NCBI GenBank assembly: GCA_949316235.1
Contig: OX438748.1
Coordinates: 32,048,836-32,112,835, forward strand
DNA from: Oegoconia quadripuncta
Taxonomy: Eukaryota > Arthropoda > Insecta > Lepidoptera > Autostichidae
DNA length: 64,000 bases
Direction: 5' to 3'
Part shown: positions 2,266-62,921 of the stretch, piece after piece
Position numbering within the stretch: the stretch's first letter is position 1
Layout: each line of letters opens with the position of its first letter
Notes under the pieces: generated by a model
Told to the model about the DNA's origin: nothing
The model's database searches: none
Seen by the model: only the letters and a program-made list of their open reading frames with translations
Program-made: the position numbers and the translations under genes

Positions 2266-2586
2266 TCCATAATAGACTATGGAAACAAATATAATTCATA
2301 TAGAACAACGACATCTTTAGACATGGCTATTAGATGGCGATATATAGTTCTATAAACGATATGCTAGATGGCGCTAGCGGTATTTTGAAGCGAGCTTTAG
2401 TTATTTCTATTTATTTCGACATCCTCGCTGATCACAAGTCACACCGATATTATATAACGGCCAAATGGCCAATAAATGTGCATAATTATGCCGTTTTCTG
2501 AAAACGAACTTCAAATGTAAGAATTCGGACTCGAAAATCGGAACAAAGGTAATTTCCAATCTGTAAAATTGCATCACCCAACTTAC

Positions 2587-2765
2587 AATTTGATTCATCT
2601 TCATTTGCCGCTCCCTTCTTATCTCATCCGAGGCGACTCGGATCGTATCATCATCTATTTCCCTCTCTCTCATCTTCTCGTTCCGAAGCCTTAGCAGTTT
2701 CAACTGATGTCCCTCAATGAAATTTGTTTTGTTCAGTGTTTGCTGATCTTTCTTGGTTTTTATTG
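2587..2765 (-). CDS. TPH-type gene, exon 5 of those seen
   Basis: Acceptor TTCTTTTCAG at the upper edge and donor GTAAGT at the lower edge (2581-2586). 179 nt, phase 1 in and phase 0 out, open throughout, encoding a charged helix (NEKMREREIDDD). The first two bases complete the Ala codon opened by the previous exon. The next exon downstream was not found in 1-2580. Confidence 0.6.
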
Positions 2766-15305: not shown

Positions 15306-15500
15306 TAAATGTATAAATTGGTATATCGTAGAATATCAGTAATAATACAAGCTTTAAACTTTTAATATCAAACGCACAAACAGTATTATTATACTCGTAC
15401 TTTAAAATATTCTGCGACATATCAATTTACAGACTCATTGTTCAATAATGTATTTGGCCTCATCTATGAGACTTCTAAGCCATTTATTTGAAACTCTTGT

Positions 15501-16452
15501 GACAAGCACAAGACTTTATAACTGTAGTTATAGACTAGACTATAGTTCGTAAACTAGGTATCATATAGTCATCATATCAGCCACAAGCCGTCCACTGCTG
15601 AACATAGGCTTCCCCCATAGAATTATGTTTACTTAATACAAACTTACCTTCCAAAATCGGTAAGGATGGCCGAAGTACACGCTGGCCTCCTTAGTTCTTA
15701 ACTTCGTTAGACGCACCATTGTCACATGAATTGTTTGTGACAAGCACAAGACTTTATAACTGTAGTTATAGACTAGACTATAGTTCGTAAACTAGGTATC
15801 ATATAGTCATCATATCAGCCACAAGCCGTCCACTGCTGAACATAGGCTTCCCCCATAGAATTATGTTTACTTAATACAAACTTACCTTCCAAAATCGGTA
15901 AGGATGGCCGAAGTACACGCTGGCCTCCTTAGTTCTTAACTTCGTTAGACGCACCATTGTCACATGAATTGTTTGTGATAAGCACAAGACTTTATAACTG
16001 TAGTTATAGACTAGACTATAGTTCGTAAACTAGGTATCATATAGTCATCATATCAGCCACAAGCCGTCCACTGCTGAACATAGGCTTCCCCCATAGAATT
16101 ATGTTTACTTAATACAAACTTACCTTCCAAAATCGGTAAGGATGGCCGAAGTACACGCTGGCCTCCTTAGTTCTTAACTTCGTTAGACGCACCATTGTCA
16201 CATGAATTGTTTGTGACAAGCACAAGACTTTATAACTGTAGTTATAGACTAGACTATAGTTCGTAAACTAGGTATCATATAGTCATCATATCAGCCACAA
16301 GCCGTCCACTGCTGAACATAGGCTTCCCCCATAGAATTATGTTTACTTAATACAAATTTACCTTCCAAAATCGGTAAGGATGGCCGAAGTACACTCTGGC
16401 CTCCTTAGTTGTTAACTTCGTTAGACGCACCATTGTCACATGAATTGTTTCC
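15501..16452. repeat. 238-bp tandem repeat, four copies
   Basis: Units begin with GACAAGCACAAGACTTTATA at 15501, 15739, 15977 and 16215, exactly 238 bp apart and nearly identical. Each holds the interspersed motif 'gccgtccactgctgaacata'. The unit contains a donor-like 'cttacctt' but no consistent open frame. Confidence 0.9.
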
Positions 16453-42660: not shown

Positions 42661-42834
42661 ACATTTATGAAAATTCTAGGAAAGTCCACAACTGAATGTA
42701 AGCCTTTCCCATGAATTAGCCATAATTGCTACGCTTATATTTGGTTGCCCCGTACCAATGACAATACTAGCCATAACTGGTTAATACTCACCTCGATTTA
42801 CTACTTTTTTTTTTTTTTTTGACTTTCGTATGAG

Positions 42835-42840
42835 TTTATT
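42835..42840 (-). terminator. poly(A) signal of the stalk-array gene
   Basis: AATAAA on the minus strand, 7 nt after the TAA stop. A genomic A16 run follows 14 nt later (42805-42820). Confidence 0.6.
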
Positions 42841-42847
42841 TTTTCGC

Positions 42848-43050
42848 TTACAATTTTATAATCTTAAGTTGAATGTCCTCAGCGCGTCCAGGATCCTCCG
42901 GGGTTGCCGTGGGTTGCATCTGCCTTTGACGGGTTTCTCTCGTTCGATTAAATATTTTGAAGCTGTACAACATGTTGTACAACATGTTGTACAGCCTCTT
43001 CCGGCATAAAAATGCGACAAAAATGACTAAAGATGATATAACCAGGTCCC
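42848..43050 (-). CDS. stalk-array gene, last exon: transmembrane helix and tail
   Basis: Acceptor CTAATTTTTCACAG, phase 1 in, 203 nt to TAA. Encodes [15 protein letters not shown] (helix, extended by residues from the previous exon), then the basic stop-transfer RKR, then [11 protein letters not shown] and a polar tail ending [14 protein letters not shown] fits the YxxPhi endocytic sorting pattern and occurs twice in tandem because the DNA there is a perfect 34-bp palindrome (42962-42995). The intron in front of it is a diverged copy of the 591-bp array unit. Confidence 0.65.
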
Positions 43051-46000
43051 CTGTGAAAAATTAGATAATTTAGCAAATACATATATGCAAATAAAAGATG
43101 CAGACATAAATAGAGGGGGTGATAGCCTACCAAAAGCTGGAGGTCTACTACCAGGTTAAAAATGTATAGGTAATGTTGTAACCTATATAAATGTGTGTGT
43201 TTTTAATATAATTTTAACGGCCCACAATCAGTAGATGATGCCTTGGTTGTTTTATTTAGTTTTCGAAAGAAAAAGTCTACTTAGTGTGTTTCTTACCGAT
43301 TTAACGTTATGTTCTCGCCGAGAAAAGGTAGGCACCATTTATCTCGAGATACCGAGACGTCTACGACATTTGAAATATTTTCCACAAACTCGTATGTAAT
43401 AATAATCAAAATTTGAAGTACACATACAAGTACATCAAAAATATATAAAAAAATTGTATCTTTACTTACATATCAAATTTCTAACAGAATGCGGTGATGT
43501 CGTGCCACCGTTTGCACCAGGCCCGCCTGTGAATAAATTAAAACATTTAGCATATATAGAATATATGTATAACGGCACGTAGTGAATTAAATTAAGATTT
43601 AGTCGATTTATTGTATCTGTAATTAATTTTGGAATGTTTATGGAACGAGTATACTAGGCAAATAATAGTTGCGTTCTTCGATATTAACAGTGACTGGTAT
43701 ACTTGGTACAATATTGTGGGCCTTTAGGATTAGAGCGGGCAATACCCGAATGGAGTTGCGGGCGGCGCTTGGATCGCACTGACATTCTTTGACAGAAGGT
43801 GGCCGAGTGAACACGCAAGCAAACCCATTTGCTCTAATCCATTCTAATCTGTGAAATCTTAAATTATTTCTTAGTAATCATAATTGAAATCATTAAAGTT
43901 ATTGTGTATCTACAATACGTGAGTGTTATTTACGAGATAGTTCATCCTCTACCCACATGGGCGATAACGAGCACGTGCTAATTCCGGACGACCCGCCCGG
44001 TGATCCGACATCAGAAGTGGGATCGCAACGAGCTATGGAGCACCACGCCAACACAGGTCAGATCAATGATTCGATGAACAATGAAAGTGATCGCTGGAAA
44101 CAATTATTTCAATTGCAACAAAATAGTTTATTGGAATTAATTAAATCAATTAAAGAGCCGAACGACATTAAATTGACGCTACCAGAATTCAACCCGGATA
44201 ATACTGACAGCGATGCACATTCATGGTGTAATACAGTCGATTTATGTATGCAAGAAAAGCCGTTGAGTGGGAGCGGTTTAATTATTGTGATGAGTAAAGC
44301 ATTAAAAGGCACCGCCGCTTCTTGGTTAGCGCAAAATAGTTTTGCTGGTATTACGTGGCCTCAACTAAAAGATCTTTTTCTGGCACGTTTCGACAGCGTT
44401 GAGACCCCAGCTACTACAGTGTATAAAATGCTTAACGAACACCCCAAGGAAGGCGAATGTCTGTCATCCTATGCTAATAGGGTTCTGAGTTCTTTAATGA
44501 ATCGCTGGCGATCTATGTCAACTGAACAAATTGCTATAGCTGTTACACTGGCGCATACCGCTAGGATTGAACCTCGACTACAACGCCTCGCATTTACTAC
44601 CGAAATCGATTCGAGGAACCGATTGCGACAAGAGCTAATGGCTTTTGTATACCGCAAGAGAGGACCACCAATACAGGAGAAGTCAAACATTTCAAATGAC
44701 GCTAAGAGGCCGCGTTTAGATCCATCTACTAGACGATGCTACAATTGCGGCAGAGCTGGTCATCGTGCTTTCGAATGTCGGAGCACTGTCCACCGAGACA
44801 GTAGTACTGCAGCACGGCCTTTTTCAGGTTCACTTTCTGGATCGATGGGTTCTACCCTTCAGCCAAAGGAAGCTGAGTTACAGAAGAAGATCATCGTGAC
44901 GACCTGCTACTTTTGCGGCGAAGCTGGCCACATAGCGACGCGCTGTCCCAAGAAAGACGCCATCTCTACTGATGCCAAGCCGGAACGGCGAGTAGATATC
45001 TGCACTGTCAAACCAGCTTCGGACTATTTGTCTAACTCGGGTGAGAAGTTTTCATTTTGCTTTGATTCTGGTGCTGAGTGCTCTCTGATAACTGAAAGTT
45101 TAGCGGAAAGATTTCCAGGTAAACGTGTTAATAATACAGTAACTCTCATAGGTATCGGTAAATCAAGTGTTACTTCTAATTCACAAATACTAGCGACTGT
45201 GACTATTCAAAATTATCCCGTCGAACTGCTATTTCATATTGTGCCTGATTATTGTTTAACGAATGAAGTTATGATCGGCCGTGATTTGATATCTTTAGGG
45301 TTTTCTGTGAAATTATATGACAATCATCTTAAACTAAGTAAAGTAAAACTCGTGTCGATTTGTGATAGAGGAACGAAAGTTCAGAACTTTTTCGGTATTG
45401 ACGCTGATATTCCAAGGGTAGAAAAAGACACACTTCTGTCGTTGCTTAATGAATATTCTGATTATTTTGTTGAGGGTATTCCACTGAGCAGAGTGACGTC
45501 GGGGCAATTAGAAATTAAATTAATCGACCCAAATCGCACGGTACAGCGTAGGCCATATCGTTTGAGCCCTAACGAACGACAGGTTGTGCGAGATAAAATT
45601 AAAGAACTTTTAGAGGCAGGTATAATACGTGAGAGTTCATCCCCGTTTGCCAGTCCTATTTTATTAGTTAAAAAGAAAGATGGAACTGACCGACTTTGCG
45701 TAGATTACCGTGAATTGAACAGTAATACAGTGCCTGATAGATATCCATTGCCATTAATTGGTGATCAGATACAACGTCTAGTTGGTGCTCATTATTTCAC
45801 CTCATTAGATATGGCGAGTGGGTACCATCAGTTGCCAATTCATACTGACTCCATAGAACGTACTGCTTTTGTTACACCGGATGGTCAGTATGAATATCTG
45901 GCCATGCCGTTTGGTCTGCGGAATGCCCCGTCAATTTACCAACGCGCCATTAATAAGGCTCACGGTGAATTGACAGAGTCTTTCGCCGTAGTTTACCTGG

Positions 46001-49000
46001 ATGACGTAATCATTCCATCACGGACTATAGAAGAGGGCATTTATCGACTACGCCTAGTTCTCGAACGTTTATCACAGGCAGGTTTCTCTTTTAATTTAAA
46101 CAAATGTGTTTTTCTAAGAACTAGAGTAGAATTTATGGGATATGAAGTGTCTGCCGGTGAAATTCGGCCAAATCCGCGCAAAATCAAAGCTTTAACCGAG
46201 GTGATGCCCCCTCAGACTGTCACTCAACTGCGGCAATTTATAGGTCTAGCCTCGTACTTCCGCCAATTTGTCCCCAGTTTTTCGTTATTAATGGCCCCGC
46301 TATACAGGCTAACGTCTGGTAAGGGAAAAGTAATATGGACAGCTGAGTATGAGAAAATCCGCCAGAACGTGATAGCAACGCTTACCGACAAACCGGTACT
46401 AACAATATTTGACCCAGATCAGCCTATTGAGCTACACACTGACGCCAGCGCTGAAGGATATGGCGCGATACTCATGCAAAAATTAGATGGAAAAATGCAT
46501 GTGGTCGAATATTATAGCCGCCGAACCTCCAGCGCTGAATCAAAATATCATTCGTATGAGCTCGAGACGCTTGCAGTCGTCAATTCCATCAAGCATTTCC
46601 GTCACTATTTGCATGGTAGAAAATTTGTTGTCGTAACCGATTGTAACGCTGTTAAGGCTTCGAAGTCGAAGGTTGATCTCACTCCTCGTGTCCATAGGTG
46701 GTGGTGTTTCTTACAAACGTTCGACTTCGATATCGAATACCGTAAGGGGAAACAGATGAGCCACGCAGATTTCTTATCGCGAAATCCTTTACCAATGCCA
46801 GAAATCAACAAAGTCGAACAAAAGAGAGTTAATTTGACGGCGATTTCTGACAACTGGCTTCAAGCCGAACAGCAAAAGGACCCCGAAATCACTCTAATCT
46901 TGACCCAGCTTCAGGAAAATAGTATTTCCAGGGATGTAGCTAACACTTATGAAGTGAGACGAGGTATTTTGCACAGGAAAATAGAGCGCAACAACAGGAG
47001 TGTCTGGTTACCAATCGTTCCTAGAGCATTTCAGTGGGCTGTTATCAATCACGTGCATGATAGTGTTGTGCATTTGGGATGGGAGAAAACACTTGAGAAA
47101 GTTTATTGCCACTATTGGTTTCCTAACATGAACAAGTATGTTAGGAAGTTTGTAGAAAACTGCATAACTTGCAGATTATCTAAGTCTCATTCAGGAAAGT
47201 TCAGGCCGAGTTACATCCAATCCCAAAAGCAACAACACCCTGGCATACCATCCACATGGATGCCACAGGAAAACTCAGTGGTAAAAATGATACGAAGGAA
47301 TATGTATTCGTGTCAATAGACTCGTTTACCAAATACGTTCTACTACACCACACACTTAATATTGACACAAATAATGCTATCAGAGCTCTAAAGTATAGCG
47401 TGTCATTATTTGGTGCGCCTATACGTGTAATAGCGGACCAGGGTAGATGTTTCGCAAGTAAAGAATTTAGGGATTTTTGTGCCACCTATAACATTAATTT
47501 GCACTTGATAGCGACAGGAACTAGCCGTGCAAACGGACAAGTCGAACGCGTTATGTCTACTTTAAAAAATATGTTAACGGCGGTCGAAGCTGATAATAAA
47601 ATATCGTGGCAGGAAGCACTACCAGACGTTCAATTAGCTTTGAATTGCACTACTAATCGCGTTACAAAAGCCAGTCCTCTTGAGTTACTTATGGGAAAGG
47701 TTGCTAGACCCTTAAAATTAATGGCCTTGGATACTGATGACATTGAAGTTGACTTAGATGATATTAGAGAGCAAGCAGCGCTAGCTATTGCAGCTAACGC
47801 TTCTAATGAAAAGGTTAGGTTTGATAAAAACAAAGCAAAAGTCAAAAACTTTGTAGTCGGTGATTTTGTACTATTAGAAAATCACGAAAGGAATCAAGCA
47901 AAACTAGATTCAAAGTTTAAGGGACCATTCAAAATAGTCGAACTGCTAGATGGTGATAGATATCTACTGAAAGCCCTTAACTCTAATAGAACGTATAAGT
48001 ATGCGCATGATCGTATTAGGCCCATGCCTGAGTGCTATGTCCCATTGGAGTTAAACAGTGGTTTGGACATAGATGCTTCGATGTCAGGATGCCCAGATAA
48101 CGGCAATGGTGAGTAATATTATAAGAATGCCCTACCTGTGTGGCAGTCGCCTGTGTGGCAGTCGCCTGTGTGGCAGTCGCCTGTGTGGCAGTCGCCTGTG
48201 TGGCAGTCGCCTGTGTGGCAGTCGCCTGTGTGGCAGTCGCTTATGTGGTAGTCGCCTGTGTGGCAATAGCCTGAGTGGCAAAGGGCTGTGTAACTTTTCG
48301 ATTAAATAGGCTTAGGGGCCTGTGTGGCATTCTACAGTTACTGTTATCAGTCTGTTTTGATTTGAGGTGCTTTTAGTATGTAAGTTTTAAATGATGATGA
48401 TGATGATAATGATGAGTTTGTTTTACGATGCATTGATAGTTAATTAAGTAAAAATGAATAAGGGTTACTGTGATTTAGGTAGTTGCCCATTTACTGGTCA
48501 GAATGACCGAACAGTACCGTGGTGAGTCACATTGGGTTTCACTTTTGTTCACAGATTCAGAGCAAGAGGAATCACACGAGGACGTGTGAAAGCGCAGGAC
48601 GGCCGTAACGGCACGTAGTGAATTAAATTAAGATTTAGTCGATTTATTGTATCTGTAATTAATTTTGGAATGTTTATGGAACGAGTATACTAGGCAAATA
48701 ATAGTTACGTTCTTCGATATTAACAGTGACTGGTATACTTGGTACAATATTGTGGGCCTTTAGGATTAGAGCGGGCAATACCCGAATGGAGTTGCGGGCG
48801 GCGCTTGGATCACACTGACATTCTTTGACAGAAGGTGGCCGAGTGAACACGCAAGCAAACCCATTTGCTCTAATCCATTCTAATCTGTGAAATCTTAAAT
48901 TATTTCTTAGTAATCATAATTGAAATCATTAAAGTTATTGTGTATCTACAATACGTGAGTGTTATTTACGAGATAGTTCATCCTCTACCCACATGGGCGA

Positions 49001-52000
49001 TAACGAGCACGTGCTAATTCCGGACGACCCGCCCGGTGATCCGACATGTATAATATAATAAATAATAAGAACTTGGATGGTTTTGAAAAAAAAACTTAAT
49101 CTACGCCATAACCTTCGAATGCAATCACCTGTCCTATTTTATTTCCTTACGGTAAAAAAACTCATGTGTATATATTTCTTTTCATGCATGTACTAAATTT
49201 TTATGACAAATGTGCGAACAGCAAGCCGTGGACAGTGATTGCTACTGCCCATAACCTCAGAGAAGGAGGTCGATGGCTTCGACTATCGATGAAAATACAC
49301 AGGAAATGGCTATGTGTGTTATGTGTTATTTTGATGATTGACGACATAGGTTAAACCTCCATAAGCAGATCAGTAGATGACCATGCGTTGGTTGTATTAT
49401 TTTATCTTCTTTTGAACACCAATAAATGTCTCACAAAGTATCACTTAAACTAAAAAAACATGAACCCAATAGATAGGTTTCCACTGATAATGTCCACAAA
49501 AAATCAATTGAAAAATAAAAATTATACAATGTAAGAAAAAAATTTAAAATACTTGAGATGTTGTATACACACACATAATAATTATCAAAACTTGAAGTAC
49601 ACGAATTACAAGGAATATAAAACTTGTGCCTCTTTACTCACCCTTATCTGGCGTATTGGGTTCAACAGGCAATGGAGTCGTACCAGTAGAGTTTATAGCA
49701 CCATCTGCACCAGAACTGTCTGTAAAAAATTAAAACATTTAGCACATATACAATTATATATATCGATTCTTTTCATGCATGTACTAAATTTTTATGACAA
49801 ACGTGCGAACAGCAAGCCGTGGACAGTGATTGCTACTGCCCATAACCTCAGAGAAGGAGGTCGATGGCTTCGACTATCGATGAAAATACACAGGAAATGG
49901 CTATGTGTGTTATGTGTTATTTTGATGATTGACGACATAGGTTAAACCTCCATAAGCAGATCAGTAGATGACCATGCGTTGGTTGTATTATTTTATCTTC
50001 TTTTGAACACCAATAAATGTCTCACAAAGTATCACTTAAACTAAAAAAACATGAACCCAATAGATAGGTTTCCACTGATAATGTCCACAAAAAATCAATT
50101 GAAAAATAAAAATTATACAATGTAAGAAAAAAATTTAAAATACTTGAAATGTTGTATACACACACATAATAATTATCAAAACTTGAAGTACACGAATTAC
50201 AAGGAATATAAAACTTGTGCCTCTTTACTCACCCTTATCTGGCGTATTGGGTTCAACCGGCATTGGAGTCGTACCAGTAGAGTTTATAGCACCATATGCA
50301 CCAGAACTGTCTGTAAAAAATTAAAACATTTAGCATATATACAATTATATATATCGAGTCTTTTCATGCATGTACTAAATTTTTATGACAAACGTGCGAA
50401 CAGCAAGTCGTGGACAGTGATTGCTACTGCCCATAACCTCAGAGAAGGAGGTCGATGGCTTCGACTATCGATGAAAATACACAGGAAATGGCTATGTGTG
50501 TTATGTGTTATTTTGATGATTGACGACATAGGTTAAACCTCCATAAGCAGATCAGTAGATGACCATGCGTTGGTTGTATTATTTTATCTTCTTTTGAACA
50601 CCAATAAATGTCTCACAAAGTATCACTTAAACTAAAAAAACATGAACCCAATAGATAGGTTTCCACTGATAATGTCCACAAAAAATCAATTGAAAAATAA
50701 AAATTATACAATGTAAGAAAAAAATTTAAAATACTTGAAATGTTGTATACACACACATAATAATTATCAAAACTTGAAGTACACGAATTACAAGGAATAT
50801 AAAACTTGTGCCTCTTTACTCACCCTTATCTGGCGTATTGGGTTCAACCGGCATTGGAGTCGTACCAGTAGAGTTTATAGCACCATATGCACCAGAACTG
50901 TCTGTAAAAAATTAAAACATTTAGCATATATACAATTATATATATATCGATTCTTTTCATGCATGTACTAAATTTTTATGACAAACGTGCGAACAGCAAG
51001 CCGTGGACAGTGATTGCTACTGCCCATAACCTCAGAGAAGGAGGTCGATGGCTTCGACTATCGATGAAAATACACAGGAAATGGCTATGTGTGTTATGTG
51101 TTATTTTGATGATTGACGACATAGGTTAAACCTCCATAAGCAGATCAGTAGATGACCATGCGTTGGTTGTATTATTTTATCTTCTTTTGAACACCAATAA
51201 ATGTCTCACAAAGTATCACTTAAACTAAAAAAACATGAACCCAATAGATAGGTTTCCACTGATAATGTCCACAAAAAATCAATTGAAAAATAAAAATTAT
51301 ACAATGTAAGAAAAAAATTTAAAATACTTGAAATGTTGTATACACACACATAATAATTATCAAAACTTGAGTACACGAATTACAAGGAATATAAAACTTG
51401 TGCCTCTTTACTCACCCTTATCTGGCGTATTGGGTTCAACAGGCATTGGAGTCGTACCAGTAGAGTTTATAGCACCATATGCACCAGAACTGTCTGTAAA
51501 AAATTAAAACATTTAGCATATATACAATTATATATATATATATATCGATTCTTTTCATGCATGTACTAAATTTTTATGACAAACGTGCGAACAGCAAGCC
51601 GTGGACAGTGATTGCTACTGCCCATAACCTTAGAGAAGGAGGTCGATGGCTTCGACTATCGATGAAAATACACAGGAAATGGCTATGTGTGTTATGTGTT
51701 ATTTTGATGATTGACGACATAGGTTAAACCTCCATAAGCAGATCAGTAGATGACCATGCCTTGGTTGTATTATTTTATCTTCTTTTGAACACCAATAAAT
51801 GTCTCACAAAGTATCACTTAAACTAAAAAAGTATGAACCCAATAGATAGGTTTCCACTGATAATGTCCACAAAAAATCAATTGAAAAATAAAAATTATAC
51901 AATGTAAGAAAAAAATTTAAAATACTTGAAATGTTGTATACACACACATAATAATTATCAAAACTTGAAGTACACGAATTACAAGGAATATAAAACTTGT

Positions 52001-55000
52001 GCCTCTTTACTCACCCTTATCTGGCGTATTGGGTTCAACAGGCAATGGAGTCGTACCAGTAGAGTTTATAGCGCCATCTGCACCAGAACTGTCTGTAAAA
52101 AATTAAAACATTTAGCATATATACAATTATATATATCGATTCTTTTCATGCATGTACTAAATTTTTATGACAAACGTGCGAACAGCAAGCCGTGGACAGT
52201 GATTGCTACTGCCCATAACCTCAGAGAAGGAGGTCGATGGCTTCGACTATCGATGAAAATACACAGGAAATGGCTATGTGTGTTATGTGTTATTTTGATG
52301 ATTGACGACATAGGTTAAACCTCCATAAGCAGATCAGTAGATGACCATGCGTTGGTTGTATTATTTTATCTTCTTTTGAACACCAATAAATGTCTCACAA
52401 AGTATCACTTAAACTAAAAAAACATGAACCCAATAGATAGGTTTCCACTGATAATGTCCACAAAAAATCAATTGAAAAATAAAAATTATACAATGTAAGA
52501 AAAAAAATTAAAATACTTGAAATGTTGTATACACACACATAATAATTATCAAAACTTGAAGTACACGAATTACAAGGAATATAAAACTTGTGCCTCTTTA
52601 CTCACCCTTATCTGGCTTATTGGGTTCAACAGGCAATGGAGTCGTACCAGTAGAGTTTATAGCACCATCTGCACCAGAACTGTCTATAAAAAATTAAAAC
52701 ATTTAGTATAATATATACAATTATATATATACATTCTTATACTAGTGATGAAAATGCACAGGAGACTAAAAAAAACTAAATAAACTAAACAAACATGATA
52801 GCCAATTCCACTGATAGCGTCCACAAAAAATCAATAGAAAAATAAAAATTATGCAATGTGAGGAAAACATTTCACATACTTGAAATGTTGACCCGCGACC
52901 CGTGCACCCACTGGCTTCACCCACCGGTGGGTGTAGGGGTAGTTCCTGTTTACCCGTGTACCCACTGCGATATGGTTGGATTTAATTATCGATGAAAAAA
53001 ATAAAATAATAATACGATAAGTTCGATGTTAAAGAGAAAAATAATACAAAAAGTTTTAAGCCTCGTTATATACTATTAGACCTATTTGTACATATCTTAC
53101 ACACGTATCGTACACACACACGTAATACTTATCAAAACTCGAAGTACACGAAGTACAAGGAATATAAAAAAATGTGCCTCTTTACTCACTGTTATGGGTT
53201 CCAGTAGGCAATGGACTCGTGCCATTAGTATTTGTCTCAAGGTGTTCGTCATTAGGTACAGTGGGCGTCTCGTTTCTAAAAGAAAATGGGAAACTGAATT
53301 ATTGCTAACCACGGTACTTCCTTATTCAACGGACCTCACTAATTTGGACTCTTATCCATTTTACCGACTGTTAATTAAGTTTTAGGTAAACTTATTTAAA
53401 GACTTATTTTTAAGCAATTTTTGAATCCCAGTGGTTGTTCAACGAACGTGAACATATATTTGATACCTGGGAAAATTTTCAGGATGCGATAGGCATTCTG
53501 GCCATTGATTTTGATTGGGTACATCATGATGGTTTGGTCAGGAAATTAGCCATTATGGCATAATGGGCCGTGCCTTTTGGAATCACACTTATGTAATCGA
53601 GTCAAAGTGTTTGATGTCAATGGTAAGTCGTCAGGGTTTCCAGTTTGCATAGGTGTTTCACGGGGCCCGATTCTTGGGCCATTCCTATTTGTTATCTATA
53701 TCAATAATCTACCTAATCGTGTAGACGGAAACTATGAGATAATAATATTTGCTGATGACACTTCCTTGCTCTTCAAAGTCAGAAGACGACGGGAACTCTT
53801 GATGAGGTGAGTAGTGCTATGGTTAAAGTAATTAAATGGTTTATGTCAAATAACTTACTCCATAAGAGACAAAAGTAAAACAAATGCAAAAACTCTCGCT
53901 ATCTAGTGTCAAACAGGTAGCTAGTACTGTATTTGAAAACTGTGCATGAATTGGGATTCGGTATCAGATCAATTTACTTCTAAAGTTAACCTGGCGGATG
54001 ATCAATGTACAAAACGAAAACTTCTTTCCGAGCTGTCATGTGTCTTCGACGTTGCCTACCCCAGTTATCTTTCTGGCAAAGTACATTATCCAGAGGATTT
54101 GAATTCTCCACCTTGGCTGGGACGAGGAACCGCCCGAACATATTGTGACTTTGTGGTCTCAGTTGTTGCCTCAGCTTTCAAGTCTTGCACTCTGTGTGTG
54201 CCTGATCGGTTACCCGCATGTGGTTCTCTAACAGATGCATGGGTTTTGTGACGCGCACTACCTGGGTACGTAGCTGCTATCTATTTGAGGGTTGGTCTCT
54301 CTGACGGTACTTACGAAGCCTGTTTGGTATGCACTAAATCCAAAGTGGCACCAACGCACTTGTCACCTTGCCACGTTTCGAGCTAATTTATTAGCATATA
54401 TTTTTGAAAATGTCCTTCCCAATAACGTCTGTGTTTTCAATTGACGCAATCCAAGCGTGGTCAGATTCAATCATCCATCATTGACCTGGATCTTTTCCCA
54501 TCCTTCCAAAAGGAAGACGTTCGTAGGTAATCAAGTTGCAAATATGCAACGTAAATTGCCGTCTGCACGCTGGAACTATATTAGCACCCATGAGACTGCG
54601 CTTCAAGGGCCTTACTGCCAGACGCTCTTATTTCTCACTCTCTTTAGGTCAAGGGTTTTATTACCTAATTTCATCGTAATCGTCATCGGTTACTTTTTAA
54701 CATGTGATTGGTTGCCTCATCGCTCGCTCGCCAATTTGACGGATTCTCATTGGTCAACATAATCGATGCCGATACTGATGAAGTTACACAATCTAAGGGC
54801 AGGGCAGTTCTCTCTTTGCCCCCTGAGCAGTGGCCATCGACAACTCTTCCCCCCACAGCTTGTGTAACTTCAGAATTACAAATTGAAGAAATCGTTCAGC
54901 CCTCCTCACCACGTCCGAGGCTAATGCTATAATGAAGCTTTGTTCCGGTTTTCTACACTGAAGAAAATTCTGCTAGTAACTGCGACTCTGCTTAGGTTCC

Positions 55001-58000: not shown

Positions 58001-61000
58001 AATGTTCGTATTCATCATACAAAGTTTTTTTGTTTTGTTTGACATGTATGCTTATATACAATAAAGTGTTAAATAAATAAATAAATAAAATAAACATTTA
58101 CCCCTCGCGGGATTCGAACCCGCAACCGTTGGTTTCACTGACAGGGTCACTATCCACTACACCAACCGGTCGTCCGCTTGCTTACTATGGACCTAGATTG
58201 CGCTGTGTGCTTGTGCAAGGACATTTCTTATTATTATAACTCGGGTACAAATGCCCGTATTCATCACACAAACATATGTCCTTAGCGGGATTCGAACCCA
58301 CAACCTTTTGGTATAGTGGCCAGAGTTGCTAACCACTACACCAAACATTATCCACCCAACCCCCCAACATTATTCACTCATTCTAGTAGTAAGGTCAAAA
58401 ATGCAATATTAGGTACCTAATTAAGGCGCTGAATAGAGCCAATGACCTTGAGCAATGGATACGCCCACTTAATGTTCGATAAAGCAGCGCTGCGTCTGCG
58501 ACACGGTCAATATGCGTACCGTCAGACGAGTCGACCTTACGGGAAACCTTCTTGCGAACTGAACTTTGAGTTAGAGCTCTCCTAAATGCAACAGGTGGCG
58601 CTGTTCGCGAAATAAAAAACAACACAAATTAATAATATAACAAGGATGATTTATTGAAATATAAATGTATAGGTATTCATAGAATGTTTTCAAAAATAAG
58701 TTTGGGACCAGAATGTTTCAGACACGGCGAAATAAATAAATAAAAAGTGTTATTTTTAAACGACTTCAAAAAAGGAGTATGTACACCGATATCTCCGAGA
58801 CTTGGCGGTTGATTCACATGGTTCTTTTTGTAAATGAAAGGGGATACCGTCGAGTTGGTCCCATTGTAATTTCAGCGCAATCGGTCCAGTAGTTTTTGTG
58901 TAATCATGGTAAATATCAGAATGGCATTACATATTTAGACGATTGCGTAGTTTTTACACAGGGAAACTAAGTAGATACAGTTTGGGTTTGTATGGAAAAA
59001 GTGTAGACTAGATCGGTGTGATTATCAGCAATAAATATGACAAATCGAAGATCATCAGGTCGAGCTGGTACACCCGAACTGCCCATTTAACCTGTAGGAG
59101 CGAGAAGGTCGCCATCGCACAAAAATTATCATGGAGATTAGCAACCACGGATAATACTAATAACTTTTTTTAACCGACTTCAAAAAAGGAGGAGGTTCTG
59201 TATTATTTATGTATGTACATCGATTAGTCCGAGATTTTTAAGCCGATTTACGTCGGTGTGATTATCAACAATAAATATGACAAATCGAAGATCATCAGGT
59301 CGAGCTGGTATACCCCAAGTGCCCACCTAACCTGTAGGAGCGAGAAGGTTCGCCATCGCACAAAAATTATCATGGAGATTAGCAACCACGGATAATACTA
59401 ATAACTTTTTTTAACCGACTTCAAAAAAGGAGGAGGTTCTGTATTATTTATGTATGTACATCGATTAATCCGAGATTTTTAAGCCGATTTACGTCGGTGT
59501 GATTATCATCAATAAATATGACAAATCGAAGATCATCAGGTCGAGCTGGTATACCCCAAGTGCCCACCTAACCTGTAGGAGCGAGAAGGTTCGCCATCGC
59601 ACAAAAATTATCATGGAGATTAGCAACCACGGATAAATACTAATAACTTTTTTTAACCAACTTCAAAAAAGGAGGAGGTTCTGTAATCTTTATGTATGTA
59701 CATCGATTAGTCCGACATTTTTAGGCCGATTTACGTGATTATAAGGCCGTGCCTGCGCTCACGCTGCTCAGCGGACTCCTCGGCAAGCCGATCGTGTATA
59801 AAACCGAGTCTATGCTCGTTCTGTTCTGGAGTTTCCTGGCGAATACGTGATTTAACGTAATCTTTCATAGCTACTAGACGTACTCGGCGAGCTTCGGGCG
59901 TCTCCTGGGAACGCGAAATTGCGTTCCGTGAGGCATTTTTTTCAAGCCGTAGTACCCTTTCAGTTTCGGTTTCTTTTGACCGACAGTTCTTTAAACGAGC
60001 AGCACCTTTCGTAAGCCTGCCCATATTGGTAAATTAATATATTTTATTATTTTGTAATGTCTGACCAGACACTAAAAAGAATTAAATAAAAAAGGATTTA
60101 AAAAAAACGACTTCAAAAAACCCGGAAAAAATAATTTAATTAAACTACTGCAATATTAATAACTGAAAAGTATGAAATAAAAAACCAGAGCAGAATGTTC
60201 TTTAGAGATAAATATACACTATTATATATAATGAGAATACAATACAATTTATATGCTATACAATAATAGTTAGGTATAATGATCATTGAGTTCGTGGGGC
60301 ACCCATTTGTCAAGCTTTTTTACCTTGCCAATTTGACGCAAATTGACCAATATTGTTTTGACGCTAACGTCGAAAGCTGCTGCTAATTCAGCCGTAAATT
60401 GTGTATCATCAGCTTTTTGGAATAGCATCCATCAGCAATCACATCAATTATCGGTATACCGTTTTTCCTAAGGCTTCCTTCTGCTATCGCAAAATTTCTT
60501 TCTTTTTCCCCTGCTTTCTTCATAGTTTCTTGAGCAACCCTTTGCCAATTTCTGGACAGAACGTCATGTTGGGTTTGGTATTTTTTATTTGAAATAAGAG
60601 GTAGATTTATTGCCGTAGAAAACTCTTTCAAATGTGAATGACCACCACCAATAGATATTATGCCTGCTATGGCACAACTATTGACATCTAAGTAATCATC
60701 CTCCGGATAATCATTTTCTATATGAAACTTTAAATTGCACATTCTACACACGAAAGTAAATTTAGAGATGAGCCCATCTTGTTTTTCGTTTATTAAATCG
60801 ATAGTATTCAGATTACAGCCAAGAGGTCCGTTCAAATTTCTTGCAATTTTTTATAAAAATGCGAGTTGGCTACAAACCGCCGACAGATGCAGATTTCTTA
60901 TTCCGTATTCTGATCACTTGTAATCTGATAAGTCTGAAACAGAAAACTTTCGTTATTATTTTATTAGTTAATATTATATTTACCGACTACGGCCCATTAT

Positions 61001-62921
61001 TATTATTATTTCGTCTTTGGCCTAAGTGTTTCTCAAAAAACAAGACAATAAGGCGGTCATCACGAACAAAATACTTTTTAGTCATATTTTCCGTAGTCAG
61101 GAATTAGTTTTTGTCTTTTATTTCATATATTATATAGCGCATTTGACGTTAGTTTGACATTTAGTTGACCATTCAGGTTACTAAGCCATTAGTTAGTACA
61201 TACCTCTTCATCTTTTTTTTTTCTGAACACCTTGTGCCTCAATGTCGTACCTGTCATTAAAAGATAATATTATTGAAACACTTCAGGAAAACTTTTTGAA
61301 TAAAATCTGTTAACTTTAATGTTTTATTTTTTATTTTTTTCGTAATAGGTACATCCTATACATACACTCTGCAACGTTTGTCGGGTTAATTTTGTTAGAC
61401 CTTATATAGTATGATGGCCGAATCTGTGATTTTCGTAAGTCTATGGTAATTCTCAATAGATTATTTTAGCGGTTGAAAGGAATTTATTTGTTTTTTTTTA
61501 TATAATTTTTATTATATGTCCCATTGGCAATCATTTTATAAAAATCTCAAAGTTATGCTTTTGTTTTATGATGACCTTTACATATTTCTTTCGACAAGGT
61601 TTGTTTTTGGTCAAAAATAACAATATTGCCTATTATCTATTTCAGAAATCCTAGATACTGGTAAAAATAATAATTTTACTCACTCTTGCAAAACAAGTCC
61701 GGTTGATGACTCTTCAGGGCCCAAATGATTTTTAGAACTGAAAATCAAAGAATTGTAGTACGTCAGCACCTAGGAATATATAATGAGTACACAGCCATGC
61801 ACAAAAATGAAATTTTTGATAAATATCACTTAGACATGTAAAAAAAGATTACAGGATTTATTTAGACATACAATAAATAAAAGCAAATAAAATAAAAAAG
61901 ACAAGAAAAGTACTGGGATCGATCCAGCACGACGAAATTCAAGCGACAAGCCCAAGTCGACTGAGCCAAACGTCTTACATAAGCGGTGACGAAAAAAGGT
62001 ACCTATACATCCCGTATCAGTAGACGCAACTACAAAATAGTGAAAACATAATTGTGGTTGCGTTTTATAAATTTGGTGTTTCATGTATATACTTAATTAA
62101 TTAAAAAGAGATATAATATTTTATTATACTTACTTTACAACCTCCATCATGTGTTTCTGATTTCTTTTATATTGCCGTTTCTTCGGTTTTGTTTTTTTTT
62201 CGAGTCCATTTTCTATTATTAACTTTACCAACTTATTTATTTACAACTGTGATTACCTACCTAATAAATAAAATTATTTACACACATACAAAATTTTACC
62301 CTAATTAAATAAACAAAACAAGAAAAAGAAAGTCCTGAATATGAATATGAAAAAAAGTTCGAATATTTGGGAGAGCGTCTCAGCGCACAACACAGGTCCA
62401 TCCAGCAACGCGCCTAAGCGATCACTGTCGCATTGAGTACGAGTAACAGAGAAAGCGTTACTTAGAATTATAGGGCGTAAGTGCAAATCACAAAATCAAT
62501 TATTTCAATTAAAATAGACGCATTATTGAAAATCTAAAACATGAATTTGTTTTAGTAACATATACGACACAATATTGTACAAAATATCATTTATGTTAGT
62601 GAATGCATATCTGAGAAAAATAAGATGTCATGCATTTTTAGATGCTACTTTGCAATTAAATTCTATCGAGAGAAGATTGTGTAATTATGTTTTGAAAACA
62701 TGAATCATGTCAGAAATATGATCAATTTTACCTATAACTTTTTTTATAATGATACGAGCTATATGCTTTACAAAAAATGATAATCTTTCAACGCAATTGG
62801 CTGCTGTCAGCCTCTTAATTATACTCACTCCTTTAACACATTTGATTTTTTGTCCTCTTCTACATGTTCCCAAAGACATATTATTACGTAATGATAATCG
62901 CAGGAATGGTTTGCAAAGTAA
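42848..62921 (-). CDS. type I membrane protein with tandem-exon stalk (partial gene)
   Basis: Twelve minus-strand exons with good splice sites join in phase: 62829-62921, 61684-61737, 57128-57220, 53190-53275, six 78-nt exons between 52683 and 49642, 43470-43526 and 42848-43050. The predicted product runs from a Cys-containing segment (possibly the end of a C-type lectin fold), through Cys-rich and Thr/Pro-rich extracellular segments with N-glycosylation sequons (NHS, NTT, NET, NGT, one NST per array exon), to one transmembrane helix, RKR, and a tail of about 50 residues. I do not recognise a named orthologue. The role may be a cell-surface or immune receptor with a glycosylated stalk; this is inference. 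Exons coding for the N-terminus and signal peptide lie beyond 62921 or outside the window. The introns carry mariner, BEL/Pao, LINE, SINE and Ty3/gypsy insertions. Confidence 0.6.
42962..42995. repeat. perfect 34-bp palindrome within coding sequence
   Basis: Built from ACAACATGTTGT units; the entire segment equals its own reverse complement. Encodes the repeated YNML of the cytoplasmic tail. Confidence 0.95.
43470..43526 (-). CDS. stalk-array gene, diverged array exon next to the anchor
   Basis: Acceptor TTAATTTATTCACAG, donor GATAT/GTAAGT. 57 nt, phase 1-1. Encodes [18 protein letters not shown], clearly related at its start to the array exons ([12 protein letters not shown]). The upstream intron matches the array-unit intron up to the point where the Ty3/gypsy element is inserted, 43 bp before this exon. 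Confidence 0.6.
43570..44010 (+). mobile_element. 5' LTR of Ty3/gypsy element
   Basis: Identical to 48606-49046 except for two substitutions. Flanked outside by TGTA at 43566-43569 and 49047-49050 (target-site duplication). Its last 54 bp include the ATG (43957) and first 18 codons of gag. Confidence 0.9.
43957..48116 (+). pseudogene. gag-pol of Ty3/gypsy element, one frameshift in integrase
   Basis: Polyprotein of capsid, protease, reverse transcriptase, RNase H and integrase. Landmarks by residue of the first frame: two CCHC knuckles near 262-275 ([14 protein letters not shown]) and 317-330, protease FDSGAECS near 368 (DSG instead of the commoner DTG), RT with CVDYRELN and YLDDV near 680, RNase [11 protein letters not shown] near 827 with ELETLAVV, and the HHCC zinc region of integrase ending NCITC near 1070. 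At about 47202 a one-base indel shifts the frame. The integrase core continues in the frame 47256-48116 with [13 protein letters not shown] and GQVERV holding the D, D and E. Apart from this break the element looks intact. Confidence 0.9.
44011..44030 (+). other. candidate primer-binding site inside the gag frame
   Basis: TCAGAAGTGGGAT immediately follows the 5' LTR and, as far as I recall insect tRNA-Leu, is complementary to its 3' arm starting five bases in from the CCA end. Because the LTR already contains the gag start, the site lies in coding sequence. Confidence 0.4.
48131..48285 (+). repeat. 15-bp minisatellite inside the retrotransposon
   Basis: CCTGTGTGGCAGTCG repeated about nine to ten times with decay at the right edge. 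Starts shortly after the pol stop. On the plus strand it reads as a Cys-Gly-Ser-Arg-Leu repeat but has no independent start context. Confidence 0.9.
48570..48605 (+). other. candidate polypurine tract before the 3' LTR
   Basis: GTGTGAAAGCGCAGGACGG precedes the 3' LTR start at 48606. Purine-rich but interrupted. Confidence 0.35.
48606..49046 (+). mobile_element. 3' LTR of Ty3/gypsy element
   Basis: 441 bp. Differs from the 5' LTR at two positions, G to A near 48707 and near 48811. Ends CCGACA before TGTA. Confidence 0.9.
49642..49719 (-). CDS. array exon 6 (last in transcript order)
   Basis: Acceptor AATTTTTTACAG, donor AAGG/GTGAGTAAAG. Encodes [17 protein letters not shown] and then [10 protein letters not shown] subtype. 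The NST sequon is present. Confidence 0.65.
50233..50310 (-). CDS. array exon 5
   Basis: Same splice sites as its neighbours. Y/M subtype: Tyr in place of Asp in GAYGA and Met in place of Leu in TTPMP. Confidence 0.65.
50824..50901 (-). CDS. array exon 4
   Basis: Y/M subtype, identical in sequence to the exon at 50233. Confidence 0.65.
51416..51493 (-). CDS. array exon 3
   Basis: Y/M subtype, differing from 50233 by one silent change (CCT for CCG). Confidence 0.65.
52015..52092 (-). CDS. array exon 2
   Basis: D/L subtype with one silent change relative to 49642. Confidence 0.65.
52606..52683 (-). CDS. array exon 1 (first in transcript order)
   Basis: D/L subtype with Lys for Thr in PNKPDK. 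Acceptor is ATAG instead of ACAG. Confidence 0.6.
52740..53185. other. intron with a small foldback insertion
   Basis: Diverged array-unit intron. 52880-52975 is a short insertion with CACCCACCGGTGGGTG at its centre, absent from other units. Confidence 0.5.
53190..53275 (-). CDS. stalk-array gene, Thr/Pro exon before the array
   Basis: Acceptor CCATTTTCTTTTAG, donor AACA/GTGAGT. 86 nt, phase 2 in, phase 1 out. Encodes [20 protein letters not shown] and PLPTGTHN. Its end (TSPLPTGT) resembles the array exon (TTPLPVEP), so it is probably the parent or an old member of the array. Confidence 0.6.
53465..53945 (+). pseudogene. LINE reverse transcriptase fragment
   Basis: Frame 53577-53810 includes [20 protein letters not shown] and [14 protein letters not shown], the RT motif with FADD. 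Broken frames on both sides. Likely the same family as 5795 and 55530. Confidence 0.7.
53946..55460 (+). pseudogene. BEL/Pao retrotransposon remnant
   Basis: Successive broken frames: [20 protein letters not shown] and SELSCVFDV (RT to RNase H region), GFCDA and TKSKVAPT (RNase H), and near 55190-55375 [20 protein letters not shown] and SALTPGHFL (integrase C-terminal side), the signatures of BEL/Pao pol. No LTRs were found. Frameshifts throughout. Confidence 0.7.
55530..56150 (+). mobile_element. LINE 3' end interrupted by an RTE-type LINE
   Basis: 55545-55622 matches the DYLDDK...WT end and 3' UTR of the family at 5795, resuming at 56094-56150. The interruption is 55641-56075 plus an 18-bp target duplication. 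Confidence 0.7.
55641..56075 (+). mobile_element. 5'-truncated RTE-type LINE with 18-bp target-site duplication
   Basis: ACTTCTTTTTCTTAGTTC at 55623-55640 recurs exactly at 56076-56093. The insert encodes the RTE C-terminus ([41 protein letters not shown]) and ends at GGAAAATGATG, a typical short RTE 3' end. Confidence 0.85.
56155..56350. other. intron spacer, nothing recognised
   Basis: AT-rich DNA between the LINE nest and the mariner-type element. Confidence 0.4.
56352..57100. mobile_element. non-autonomous mariner-type element
   Basis: TTGGGTCTTTACCTATGAAA at the left, CTTCATAGGTAAGGACGTAA at the right, TA on both sides. Shares its right half with 24750-25077. Its right end lies 28 bp from the donor side of exon 57128-57220. 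Confidence 0.75.
57128..57220 (-). CDS. stalk-array gene, Cys-rich exon
   Basis: Acceptor AATTTCTTTTTTAG, donor AAAAA/GTAAGT. 93 nt, phase 2-2. Encodes [20 protein letters not shown] and [10 protein letters not shown]: three Cys within nine residues and one NTT sequon. Confidence 0.6.
57230..57655. other. intron, nothing recognised
   Basis: AT-rich. 'ttattccgtcc' recurs at 57345 and 57500, hinting at an old duplication. Confidence 0.4.
57663..57866 (+). repeat. tRNA-derived SINE (family 1)
   Basis: 'ggtcgcgggttcgaatcccgc' B-box region at 57706 and family body to 'catctggtatccataacaca'. The A-box side is partly lost. Confidence 0.7.
57890..58172 (-). repeat. tRNA-derived SINE (family 2) with nested insertion
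   Basis: Body at 57890-58025, tRNA-like part at 58093-58172. Interrupted by 58026-58092, a (TAAA)-tailed fragment identical in type to 37390-37452. Confidence 0.75.
58236..58347 (-). repeat. tRNA-derived SINE (family 1)
   Basis: 'gcgggattcgaacccacaac' and 'ctaaccactacaccaaac', minus strand. Third SINE in a row, opposite in orientation to 57663. Confidence 0.7.
58350..58745. other. intron, nothing recognised
   Basis: A minus-strand frame of 76 codons at 58395-58625 has no domain or splice support. Confidence 0.35.
58750..58925. repeat. 'cgacttcaaaaaaggag' repeat, single diverged unit
   Basis: Starts like the 240-bp array units that follow but continues differently ('tcggtccagtagtttttgtg'). 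Confidence 0.5.
59014..59735. repeat. ~240-bp tandem repeat, three copies
   Basis: CGGTGTGATTATCA starts units at 59014, 59254 and 59495. Each contains 'aaatcgaagatcatcaggtc' and 'aaccgacttcaaaaaaggag'. Adjacent to the STPR-like ORF and probably part of the same transposon. Confidence 0.85.
59731..60024 (-). CDS. STPR-like repeat ORF (transposon-associated)
   Basis: 97 codons beginning [20 protein letters not shown]. Contains repeats of about 24 residues around [20 protein letters not shown] and [10 protein letters not shown], the pattern of STPR DNA-binding repeats. In insects such repeats also occur at the N-terminus of Helitron-encoded proteins (from memory). The frame runs off into the tandem repeat, so it is truncated or the first exon of something longer. 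Flanked by the CGACTTCAAAAAA repeat on both sides (59655, 60108). Confidence 0.5.
   Translation of the reverse strand: MGRLTKGAARLKNCRSKETETERVLRLEKNASRNAISRSQETPEARRVRLVAMKDYVKSRIRQETPEQNEHRLGFIHDRLAEESAEQRERRHGLIIT
60281..60413 (-). mobile_element. 133-bp mariner fragment
   Basis: Matches 11443-11575 of the mariner in this window over exactly 133 bp with about three differences, including the WVPHEL linker. No TIRs, so it did not move by itself. Confidence 0.9.
60383..60850 (-). pseudogene. Mutator-like transposase domain fragment joined to mariner piece
   Basis: Minus-strand frame with [10 protein letters not shown] (a CxxC), then [31 protein letters not shown] and [11 protein letters not shown], which fits the Mutator-like transposase domain found in many arthropod and mollusc elements (from memory). 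A complete domain would continue well past DGCYSK. Here the last residues come from the mariner fragment and a stop follows. The 5' boundary near 60850 is an in-frame stop rather than a start. Confidence 0.6.
60855..61680. other. intron; one rejected exon
   Basis: AT-rich. 61204-61250 has splice-like edges but shifts the frame into a stop. The rest shows nothing. Confidence 0.4.
61684..61737 (-). CDS. stalk-array gene, Ser/Glu-rich exon
   Basis: Acceptor TTTGATTTTCAG, donor CAAGA/GTGAGT. 54 nt, phase 2-2, encoding [17 protein letters not shown]. Symmetric, so it could be skipped without changing the frame. Confidence 0.55.
61905..61995 (-). repeat. tRNA-like SINE remnant (another family)
   Basis: On the minus strand: GACGTTTGGCTCAGTCGACT and CTGGATCGATCCCAGTAC resemble A-box and B-box regions. 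Confidence 0.45.
62000..62825. other. intron, nothing certain
   Basis: AT-rich. 62055-62095 is a tail of the repeat family at 26512. A donor-like site at 62133 has no acceptable acceptor or phase. Confidence 0.4.
62829..62921 (-). CDS. stalk-array gene, most 5' exon found
   Basis: Acceptor TTTTCTTTTTACAG, donor AAGGA/GTGAGT. 93 nt, phase 2-2. Encodes [20 protein letters not shown] and [10 protein letters not shown]. Two Cys separated by seven residues followed by xWE resemble the last disulphide of C-type lectin domains (C-x7-C then E), but the usual preceding WND is absent. Phase 0 is also open, so the frame is chosen because it fits the next exon. Confidence 0.5.

What the first reader, a model, noticed from the sequence alone, without database searches (positions are those of the whole stretch)
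49172..52735. Array of six near-identical, phase-symmetric exons building a variable stalk
Six ~591-bp tandem units each carry a 78-nt minus-strand exon (26 codons, phase 1-1) with strong splice sites and an NST glycosylation sequon. Exons before and after, found independently by splice consensus, have exactly the phases needed to join the array, and the last one encodes a transmembrane helix, stop-transfer, stop codon and AATAAA. Any number of array exons can be included without a frameshift, so stalk length could vary by alternative splicing and by copy number. I recognise no named gene like it.
Basis: partly seen in the sequence, partly recalled or inferred. Interest (0 to 1): 0.88.

Follow-up and report, generated by a model that had tools for sequence, protein, structure and literature searches.

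The report
Repeated stalk exons in membrane glycoprotein
In a probable moth or butterfly genome, a predicted single-copy surface protein appears to have a stalk built from six near-identical tandem copies of one small exon, so its length could change in whole steps without breaking the gene; no RNA evidence was available to prove this.

Summary
The array is real: six tandem units (591-603 bp), each with a 78-nt minus-strand exon-like segment, phase 1-1, flanked by the strongest splice-site pairs in the 64 kb. I extended and corrected the gene model. A signal-peptide exon and a short Cys-bearing exon lie about 41 and 27 kb beyond the window. With 62921-62829, 57220-57128, 53275-53190, the array, 43526-43470 and 43050-42848 they form a phase-consistent open frame: signal peptide, Cys-rich head, sequon-rich stalk, transmembrane helix, 51-residue tail, stop, AATAAA. 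A further phase-matching candidate, 61737-61684, is rejected: it lies inside a young transposon. The neighbouring exons are not independent support: 53275-53190 and 43526-43470 are diverged copies of the same exon-intron module. No other copy of the gene was found in its genome, and no family was matched above a cut-off. Within the array exons vary at least as much as introns, so no coding constraint is shown; splicing, copy-number variation and expression are untested. Best reading: an orphan type I membrane glycoprotein whose stalk grew by repeated exon-intron duplication, like Schistosoma SmPoMuc mucins or spider flagelliform silk. New member of a known architecture; moderate interest.

The parts
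62829..62921 (-). Predicted exon 3 (93 nt, phase 2-2), [30 protein letters not shown], Cys-rich head; exons 1 and 2 lie outside the window at C7:32154088-32154227 and C7:32139864-32139911
   Evidence: Best non-array exon by splice score in the window, 9.9 bits; no second copy found in own genome
57128..57220 (-). Predicted exon 4 (93 nt, phase 2-2), [30 protein letters not shown]
   Evidence: Only open frame is 2-2; splice score 7.2, rank 14 of non-array minus candidates; no second copy found
53190..53275 (-). Predicted exon 5 (86 nt, phase 2-1); its 3' part and downstream intron are a diverged copy of the array module
   Evidence: Exon alignment score 35 against shuffle maximum 23, 0 of 300; intron 143 against 35, 0 of 300; splice score only 6.3, rank 25
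52606..52683 (-). Array exon 1 (78 nt, 1-1), D/L type, T to K change
52015..52092 (-). Array exon 2 (78 nt, 1-1), D/L type
51416..51493 (-). Array exon 3 (78 nt, 1-1), Y/M type
50824..50901 (-). Array exon 4 (78 nt, 1-1), Y/M type
50233..50310 (-). Array exon 5 (78 nt, 1-1), Y/M type, identical to array exon 4
49642..49719 (-). Array exon 6 (78 nt, 1-1), D/L type
49172..52738 (-). Tandem array of six exon-intron units, borders in TA-rich sequence about 55 nt upstream of each exon
   Evidence: the full unit was found only here in the genome (40 of 611 candidates scored)
43470..43526 (-). Predicted exon 12 (57 nt, 1-1), [18 protein letters not shown], diverged module copy, 21 nt shorter than the array exon
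   Evidence: 60 nt before it score 55 against shuffle maximum 28, 0 of 300; the exon itself 20, reached by 2 of 300; splice score 8.4, rank 4
42848..43050 (-). Predicted last exon (203 nt, phase 1 in): most of the transmembrane helix [19 protein letters not shown] (begun in exon 12), [11 protein letters not shown] tail, stop TAA
   Evidence: frame; acceptor 6.4 bits; no second copy found
42835..42840 (-). AATAAA poly(A) signal, followed by a 16-A run at 42820-42805

Best explanation
A single-copy orphan gene on the minus strand, about 62.5 kb from start codon to stop, encodes a type I membrane glycoprotein: signal peptide, short Cys-rich head, Ser/Thr/Pro- and sequon-rich stalk, one transmembrane helix and a 51-residue tail. 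The stalk grew by repeated duplication of one exon-intron module with phase 1 borders, at several ages: old copies survive as exons 5 (in part) and 12, and a recent burst gave the six-unit array. Because each array exon is 78 nt and phase 1-1, unequal crossing over (probably at the TA-rich unit borders) or exon skipping changes the stalk by 26-residue steps, each adding or removing one N-glycosylation sequon, without a frameshift. Shown from sequence: the array, phases, splice consensus, module homology, no other copy found. Inferred: that it is transcribed and spliced so, surface placement, glycosylation, the mechanism of growth. Not shown: any length variation in use or between individuals.
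For: Array exons rank 1-6 among splice-flanked open exons on both strands (looser scan). One phase-consistent frame joins all proposed exons. The best signal-peptide exon in 106.7 kb, both strands, has the phase needed; 0 of 20 simulated sequences of that length gave one as good, thresholds set afterwards. The best internal 2-2 exon in the gap supplies exon 2. The full unit was found only here in the 622.6 Mb genome (40 of 611 candidates scored), and in the window the unit matches only 43.2-53.2 kb. Splice sites and phase survive in module copies whose introns diverged. Sequons: 6 in 94 residues of exons 3-5 plus the first junction, background 244 in 36,906, Poisson 4.7e-5. Array peptide is 42% Ser/Thr/Pro. 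No second copy of the proposed exons was found in the genome (150 of 279 candidates scored, 6 of 6), unlike the rejected transposon exon.
Against: No RNA evidence of any kind. Within the array exon sites vary more than intron sites (5 of 78 against 11 of about 505, Fisher p 0.05) and 3 of 5 changes alter the protein, so coding constraint is not shown. Exons 4 and 5 have unremarkable splice scores (ranks 14 and 25 of non-array minus candidates). Introns of about 14 and 28 kb separate exons 1, 2 and 3. No relative in two protein searches of a database that does hold lepidopteran proteins; but both queries contained the false exon and lacked exons 1 and 2, and the first lacked exon 3. 29 of 657 open segments of 40 or more residues are as hydrophobic as the helix. 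A rival exon at 101832-101686 (continued coordinates) also fits phase 2-2. Exon 2 is short and its own-genome match is weak (E 0.01).
Confidence: 0.7

Rival explanations
1. Same gene structure, different meaning: the array is a recent, nearly neutral expansion. The gene is expressed, some or all array exons are included, and stalk length has no function. Copies accumulate and homogenise by unequal exchange because extra phase-symmetric stalk repeats are tolerated. (This is nested in the best explanation and shares its probability.)
For: Exon variation not lower than intron variation, and 3 of 5 exon changes are non-synonymous; exon types and intron similarity do not group alike, as expected of exchange.
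Against: None decisive; sequons and splice sites are intact in all six copies.
Confidence: 0.4
2. The array is a non-coding satellite-like repeat (or skipped pseudo-exons) in an intron of the gene; the mature protein joins exon 5 to exon 12 or omits them too.
For: No purifying selection within the array; part of the unit is a dispersed old repeat; skipping keeps the frame.
Against: Strongest splice sites of the window; diverged module copies keep splice sites and phase; sequon and Ser/Thr/Pro bias in the one open frame.
Confidence: 0.2
3. Decayed gene: the locus once encoded such a protein but is now a pseudogene with transposons in its introns.
For: Recent insertions: a Gypsy element (LTRs 440 of 442 identical) and a Mutator-like element starting about 10 nt after the end of exon 3.
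Against: Every proposed exon is open, with splice sites, start, stop and AATAAA in place.
Confidence: 0.08

Closest known systems
SmPoMuc polymorphic mucins of Schistosoma mansoni (PMC2576457)
   Same: A small exon with its introns repeated in tandem, intron parts of the repeats more than 94% identical, repeats separated by microsatellites, a glycosylated repeat region with Ser, Thr and Pro, concerted evolution (passages).
   Different: There 27-bp exons in ~1 kb repeats near the 5' end of a multigene family, with transcripts, splice variants and repeat-number differences shown; here 78-nt exons in ~591-bp units near the 3' end of a gene with no other copy found and a transmembrane exon, all untested by RNA.
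Spider flagelliform and Argiope MaSp silk genes (passages in PMC2576457 and PMC9779670)
   Same: Tandem exon-intron units; introns at least as homogenised as exons.
   Different: Large secreted structural fibres; here a short membrane-anchored stalk.
Schistosome micro-exon genes (PMC4350168) and aphid bicycle genes (PMC9168663)
   Same: Many small exons; bicycle exons are nearly all of one phase, and in micro-exon genes symmetrical exons allow splice variants (passages).
   Different: Not near-identical copies of one exon, as far as the passages say; recalled as mostly secreted proteins, here a predicted membrane protein.
CD164/endolyn sialomucins (Pfam PF05283, MGC-24)
   Same: Small glycosylated type I membrane protein (recalled); weak whole-model match E 0.025.
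   Different: 15.3 bits against a cut-off of 28.5; a shuffled control reached another family at E 0.02; the genome's own above-cut-off match is on another contig and this locus is not among the three matches.

Membership tests
Gene with a tandem exon-intron repeat array (SmPoMuc / flagelliform type) | Near-identical tandem units each holding an exon and intron | tested here: met
   (exon status by splice consensus and open frame only)
Gene with a tandem exon-intron repeat array (SmPoMuc / flagelliform type) | Introns homogenised as much as or more than exons | tested here: met
   11 of about 505 intron columns against 5 of 78 exon columns vary, p 0.05
Gene with a tandem exon-intron repeat array (SmPoMuc / flagelliform type) | Repeat exons present in mRNA | not testable with these tools
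   no RNA data held
Gene with a tandem exon-intron repeat array (SmPoMuc / flagelliform type) | Copy number differs between individuals | not testable with these tools
   one assembly only
SmPoMuc family | Multigene family with sequence homology to SmPoMuc | tested here: not met
   no other copy found in own genome; no protein relative listed (queries with the false exon and without exons 1-2)
MGC-24 / CD164 (PF05283) | Score above the curated cut-off | tested here: not met
   15.3 bits against 28.5; 0 of 6 shuffles matched it, but one shuffle reached another family at E 0.02
Nitrophorin / lipocalin (PF02087) | Score above the curated cut-off | tested here: not met
   16.8 bits against 23, and it vanished when the transposon exon was removed
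TNF receptor (PF00020) | Cys-rich domain recognised by Pfam | tested here: not met
   not listed at E up to 10 for the head (filters drop most matches above about 0.1); resemblance of the Cys spacing is recalled only

The most novel reading that the evidence does not exclude
A lineage-specific insect surface receptor whose stalk length and glycan load are set by a modular exon array: individuals or cells display different numbers of 26-residue glycosylated steps, of two exon types (D/L and Y/M), through copy-number change and exon skipping, as a length-tunable membrane protein in host-pathogen or cell-contact roles.
Probability: 0.15. Interest if true: 0.75.

Novelty: new member of a known kind. 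Interest (0 to 1): 0.5.

Why it matters
If transcribed, it is an insect example of stalk lengthening by whole exon-intron duplication, with module copies of several ages side by side in one gene. That makes a testable case of how repetitive glycosylated stalks arise and are homogenised, and of whether tandem exon number varies between individuals. Such a gene is also easy for assembly and annotation to miss: exons of 48-203 nt, introns of up to about 28 kb, near-identical repeats, transposons in its introns (inference).

Tried and rejected
Exon 61737-61684: fits in phase and scores 7.8 bits, and I used it in early protein models, but it lies in a Mutator-like transposon. Of nine fetched places (L030-L038), eight match at least 60227-62818 of the window at 99.4-99.8% and one in part. 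The left end 60182 is only the edge of the fetched loci. Dropped; the frame is unchanged.

Nitrophorin-like head: E 0.007 with the false exon (best PDB E 0.099), gone without it. CD164 sialomucin: below cut-off, and the genome has a better match on another contig. TNF-receptor-like head: recalled Cys spacing, no Pfam match.

Exon 101832-101686 (phase 2-2, 8.2 bits) as an extra exon between exons 1 and 2: not excluded; left out because it would split the Cys-rich head. Whether it or exon 2 lies in a repeat was only tested for exon 2.

Purifying selection in the array: tested, not found. Rfam and tRNA: nothing in the window. The 591-bp unit against phages (distant) and plasmids (near), and an early protein model against viral contigs: nothing. 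Literature: ten searches gave analogues but no lepidopteran case in what was listed; that is a statement about these searches of an open-licence library only.

Full report
What is there. Six tandem units at 49172-52738 each hold a 78-nt minus-strand segment with TTTTTACAG at its 5' side (TTTTTATAG in the first) and GTGAGTAA at its 3' side; the segment reads DSSGA(D/Y)[10 protein letters not shown](L/M)PVEPN(T/K)PDK in phase 1-1. Units are 591-603 bp as cut. Intron pairs differ at 0.8-2.5% of aligned sites, a figure that includes one poorly aligned unit end. Two linked protein-level differences split the exons into D/L copies (1, 2, 6) and Y/M copies (3, 4, 5); copies 4 and 5 have identical exons but introns that differ at 8 of 513 sites, while copies 5 and 6 have the most alike introns (4 of 513) and different exon types. 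That is what repeated exchange among units would leave.

Is it more than chance. A simple splice-site scan with matrices typed from general knowledge, both strands, whole window, put the six array exons first (13.3 bits five times, 11.3 once; 35 minus and 12 plus candidates). With looser thresholds (111 minus and 68 plus candidates) the best non-array exon was 62921-62829 at 9.9; the best on the plus strand was 9.6. Exon 43526-43470 ranked 4th, 57220-57128 14th and 53275-53190 25th among non-array minus candidates, so the last two rest on phase, uniqueness and homology rather than on splice score.

Module homology. The intron after exon 53275-53190 (score 143, maximum of 300 shuffles 35), the intron before the last exon (54 against 38), and the 60 nt before exon 43526-43470 (55 against 28) are related to the array intron; the last 60 nt before the last exon only marginally (33, reached by 2 of 300). 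Exon 53275-53190 is related to the array exon (35 against 23), exon 43526-43470 marginally (20, reached by 2 of 300), and the last exon, 57220-57128 and 62921-62829 are not. The 57-nt exon differs from 78 nt by a multiple of three. A blastn of the unit against the window hit only 43.2-53.2 kb.

Genome context. The window is C7:32048836-32112835 of a 622.6 Mb, 45-contig assembly. The full unit was found six times, all here; two diverged pieces lie just beyond, and the other 39 of 47 listed matches are 74-83% matches to positions 216-370 of the unit only, an old dispersed repeat inside the intron (40 of 611 candidates scored, so counts are lower bounds). The gene's exons match nowhere else with confidence: (150 of 279 candidates scored) the eleven best matches, E 7.5e-5 or better, were exons of this locus, the next was 0.024, and the remaining rows fell on the stretch of the query that came from the transposon exon; (6 of 6 scored) five matches were exons of this locus, two of them weak because short (exon 2 at E 0.01, exon 5 at 0.56), and the sixth was at E 4.2.

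Rest of the gene. I took 100 kb beyond the window end. The best signal-peptide exon in 106.7 kb, both strands, is C7:32154088-32154227: MVFTRYFSVLVFALLLFFSTCNG then ALFVDLPCPEGQFRPISFCISCP, donor GTATGT, phase 2 out. None as good in hydrophobicity, donor and phase came in 20 simulated sequences, though I set these thresholds after seeing it. Among phase 2-2 exon candidates between exon 1 and exon 4 the best is C7:32139864-32139911, YLESQGEDDLYLKHC (11.4 bits), then 62921-62829 (9.9), 101832-101686 in continued coordinates (8.2) and 61737-61684 (7.8). The last is a transposon exon: it sits in an element reaching from at least 60182 to 62818 whose fetched copies elsewhere are nearly identical and which holds a Mutator-like transposase (PF20700, E 3.7e-32). 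Removing it keeps the frame. The model then reads: signal peptide; Cys-rich head; stalk; helix [31 protein letters not shown] and 39 more residues; stop; AATAAA 7 nt after the stop.

Protein character. Exons 3-5 plus the first array junction hold 6 N-X-S/T sequons in 94 residues; other open segments of the window hold 244 in 36,906 (Poisson 4.7e-5). The exons were chosen before the count, but the set was revised once (with the transposon exon the figure was 6 in 112, 1.2e-4; with exons 1 and 2 after the signal peptide 6 in 134, 3.2e-4). Each array exon adds one sequon and is 42% Ser/Thr/Pro; 91 of 6177 background 26-residue stretches reach that. YNML fits the YXXphi sorting motif as I recall it; that is a lead only.

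Relatives. Pfam, NCBIfam and PDB gave nothing above a curated cut-off or at a convincing E-value (NCBIfam and PDB with early or partial models). Two searches of 5.8 billion proteins gave none at E up to 10 among 7995 and 7986 scored candidates. The database does hold lepidopteran proteins: a mariner query found 412, with Melitaea, Euphydryas, Bombyx, Plutella and Spodoptera among the names of the 120 listed. But both gene queries contained the false exon and lacked exons 1 and 2, and the search needs shared 5-residue words, so a fast-evolving orthologue could be missed. I therefore call it an orphan only within these searches.

How it most likely works. The exon is symmetric, so gain or loss of whole units or skipping of exons leaves the frame intact, while retention of an array intron would end translation at once (the donor GTGAGTAA holds a TAA in frame). 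Unit borders lie in a TA-rich stretch and unit lengths differ partly there, which suggests where unequal exchange starts; SmPoMuc repeats are likewise separated by microsatellites (PMC2576457, passages). Whether length varies in nature is unknown. The neutral-expansion reading explains the lack of constraint equally well, and I rate it as the chief rival about function, not about gene structure.

Literature seen. PMC2576457: passages. PMC9779670: passages. [quoted passage not shown] PMC4350168: passages. All other papers: search listings only.

Noticed in passing
43570-49047: Young Gypsy-type LTR element on the plus strand in the intron between the array and exon 12: LTRs 440 of 442 identical, likely 4-bp target duplication TGTA, reverse transcriptase, RNase H and integrase domains.
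   Followed up: partly
60182-62818: Very young Mutator-like element with nearly identical copies elsewhere in the genome, inserted about 10 nt after the end of exon 3; it carries its own splice-like exon at 61737-61684.
   Followed up: partly
42805-42820: A 16-A run (minus strand) 14 nt after the AATAAA of the last exon, one of the two longest A/T runs in the window; looks like a poly(A) tail in the genome, perhaps from cDNA-mediated conversion of the 3' end.
   Followed up: no
48135-48280: 15-bp minisatellite, 9.7 copies (CCTGTGTGGCAGTCG), inside the Gypsy element.
   Followed up: no
15497-16450: Four copies of a 238-bp tandem repeat at 99% matches.
   Followed up: no
59013-59736: Three copies of a 241-bp tandem repeat at 96% matches.
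   Followed up: no
2410-7649: Several Glu/Arg-rich coiled-coil-like open stretches on the minus strand (2410-2817, 3950-4198, 7499-7649), possibly exons of one gene; no Pfam match above cut-off for the two tested.
   Followed up: no
L045 (C2:17084374-17084490): Above-cut-off match to the C-terminal part of MGC-24/CD164 in the same genome (36.8 bits), probably the true CD164 homologue.
   Followed up: no
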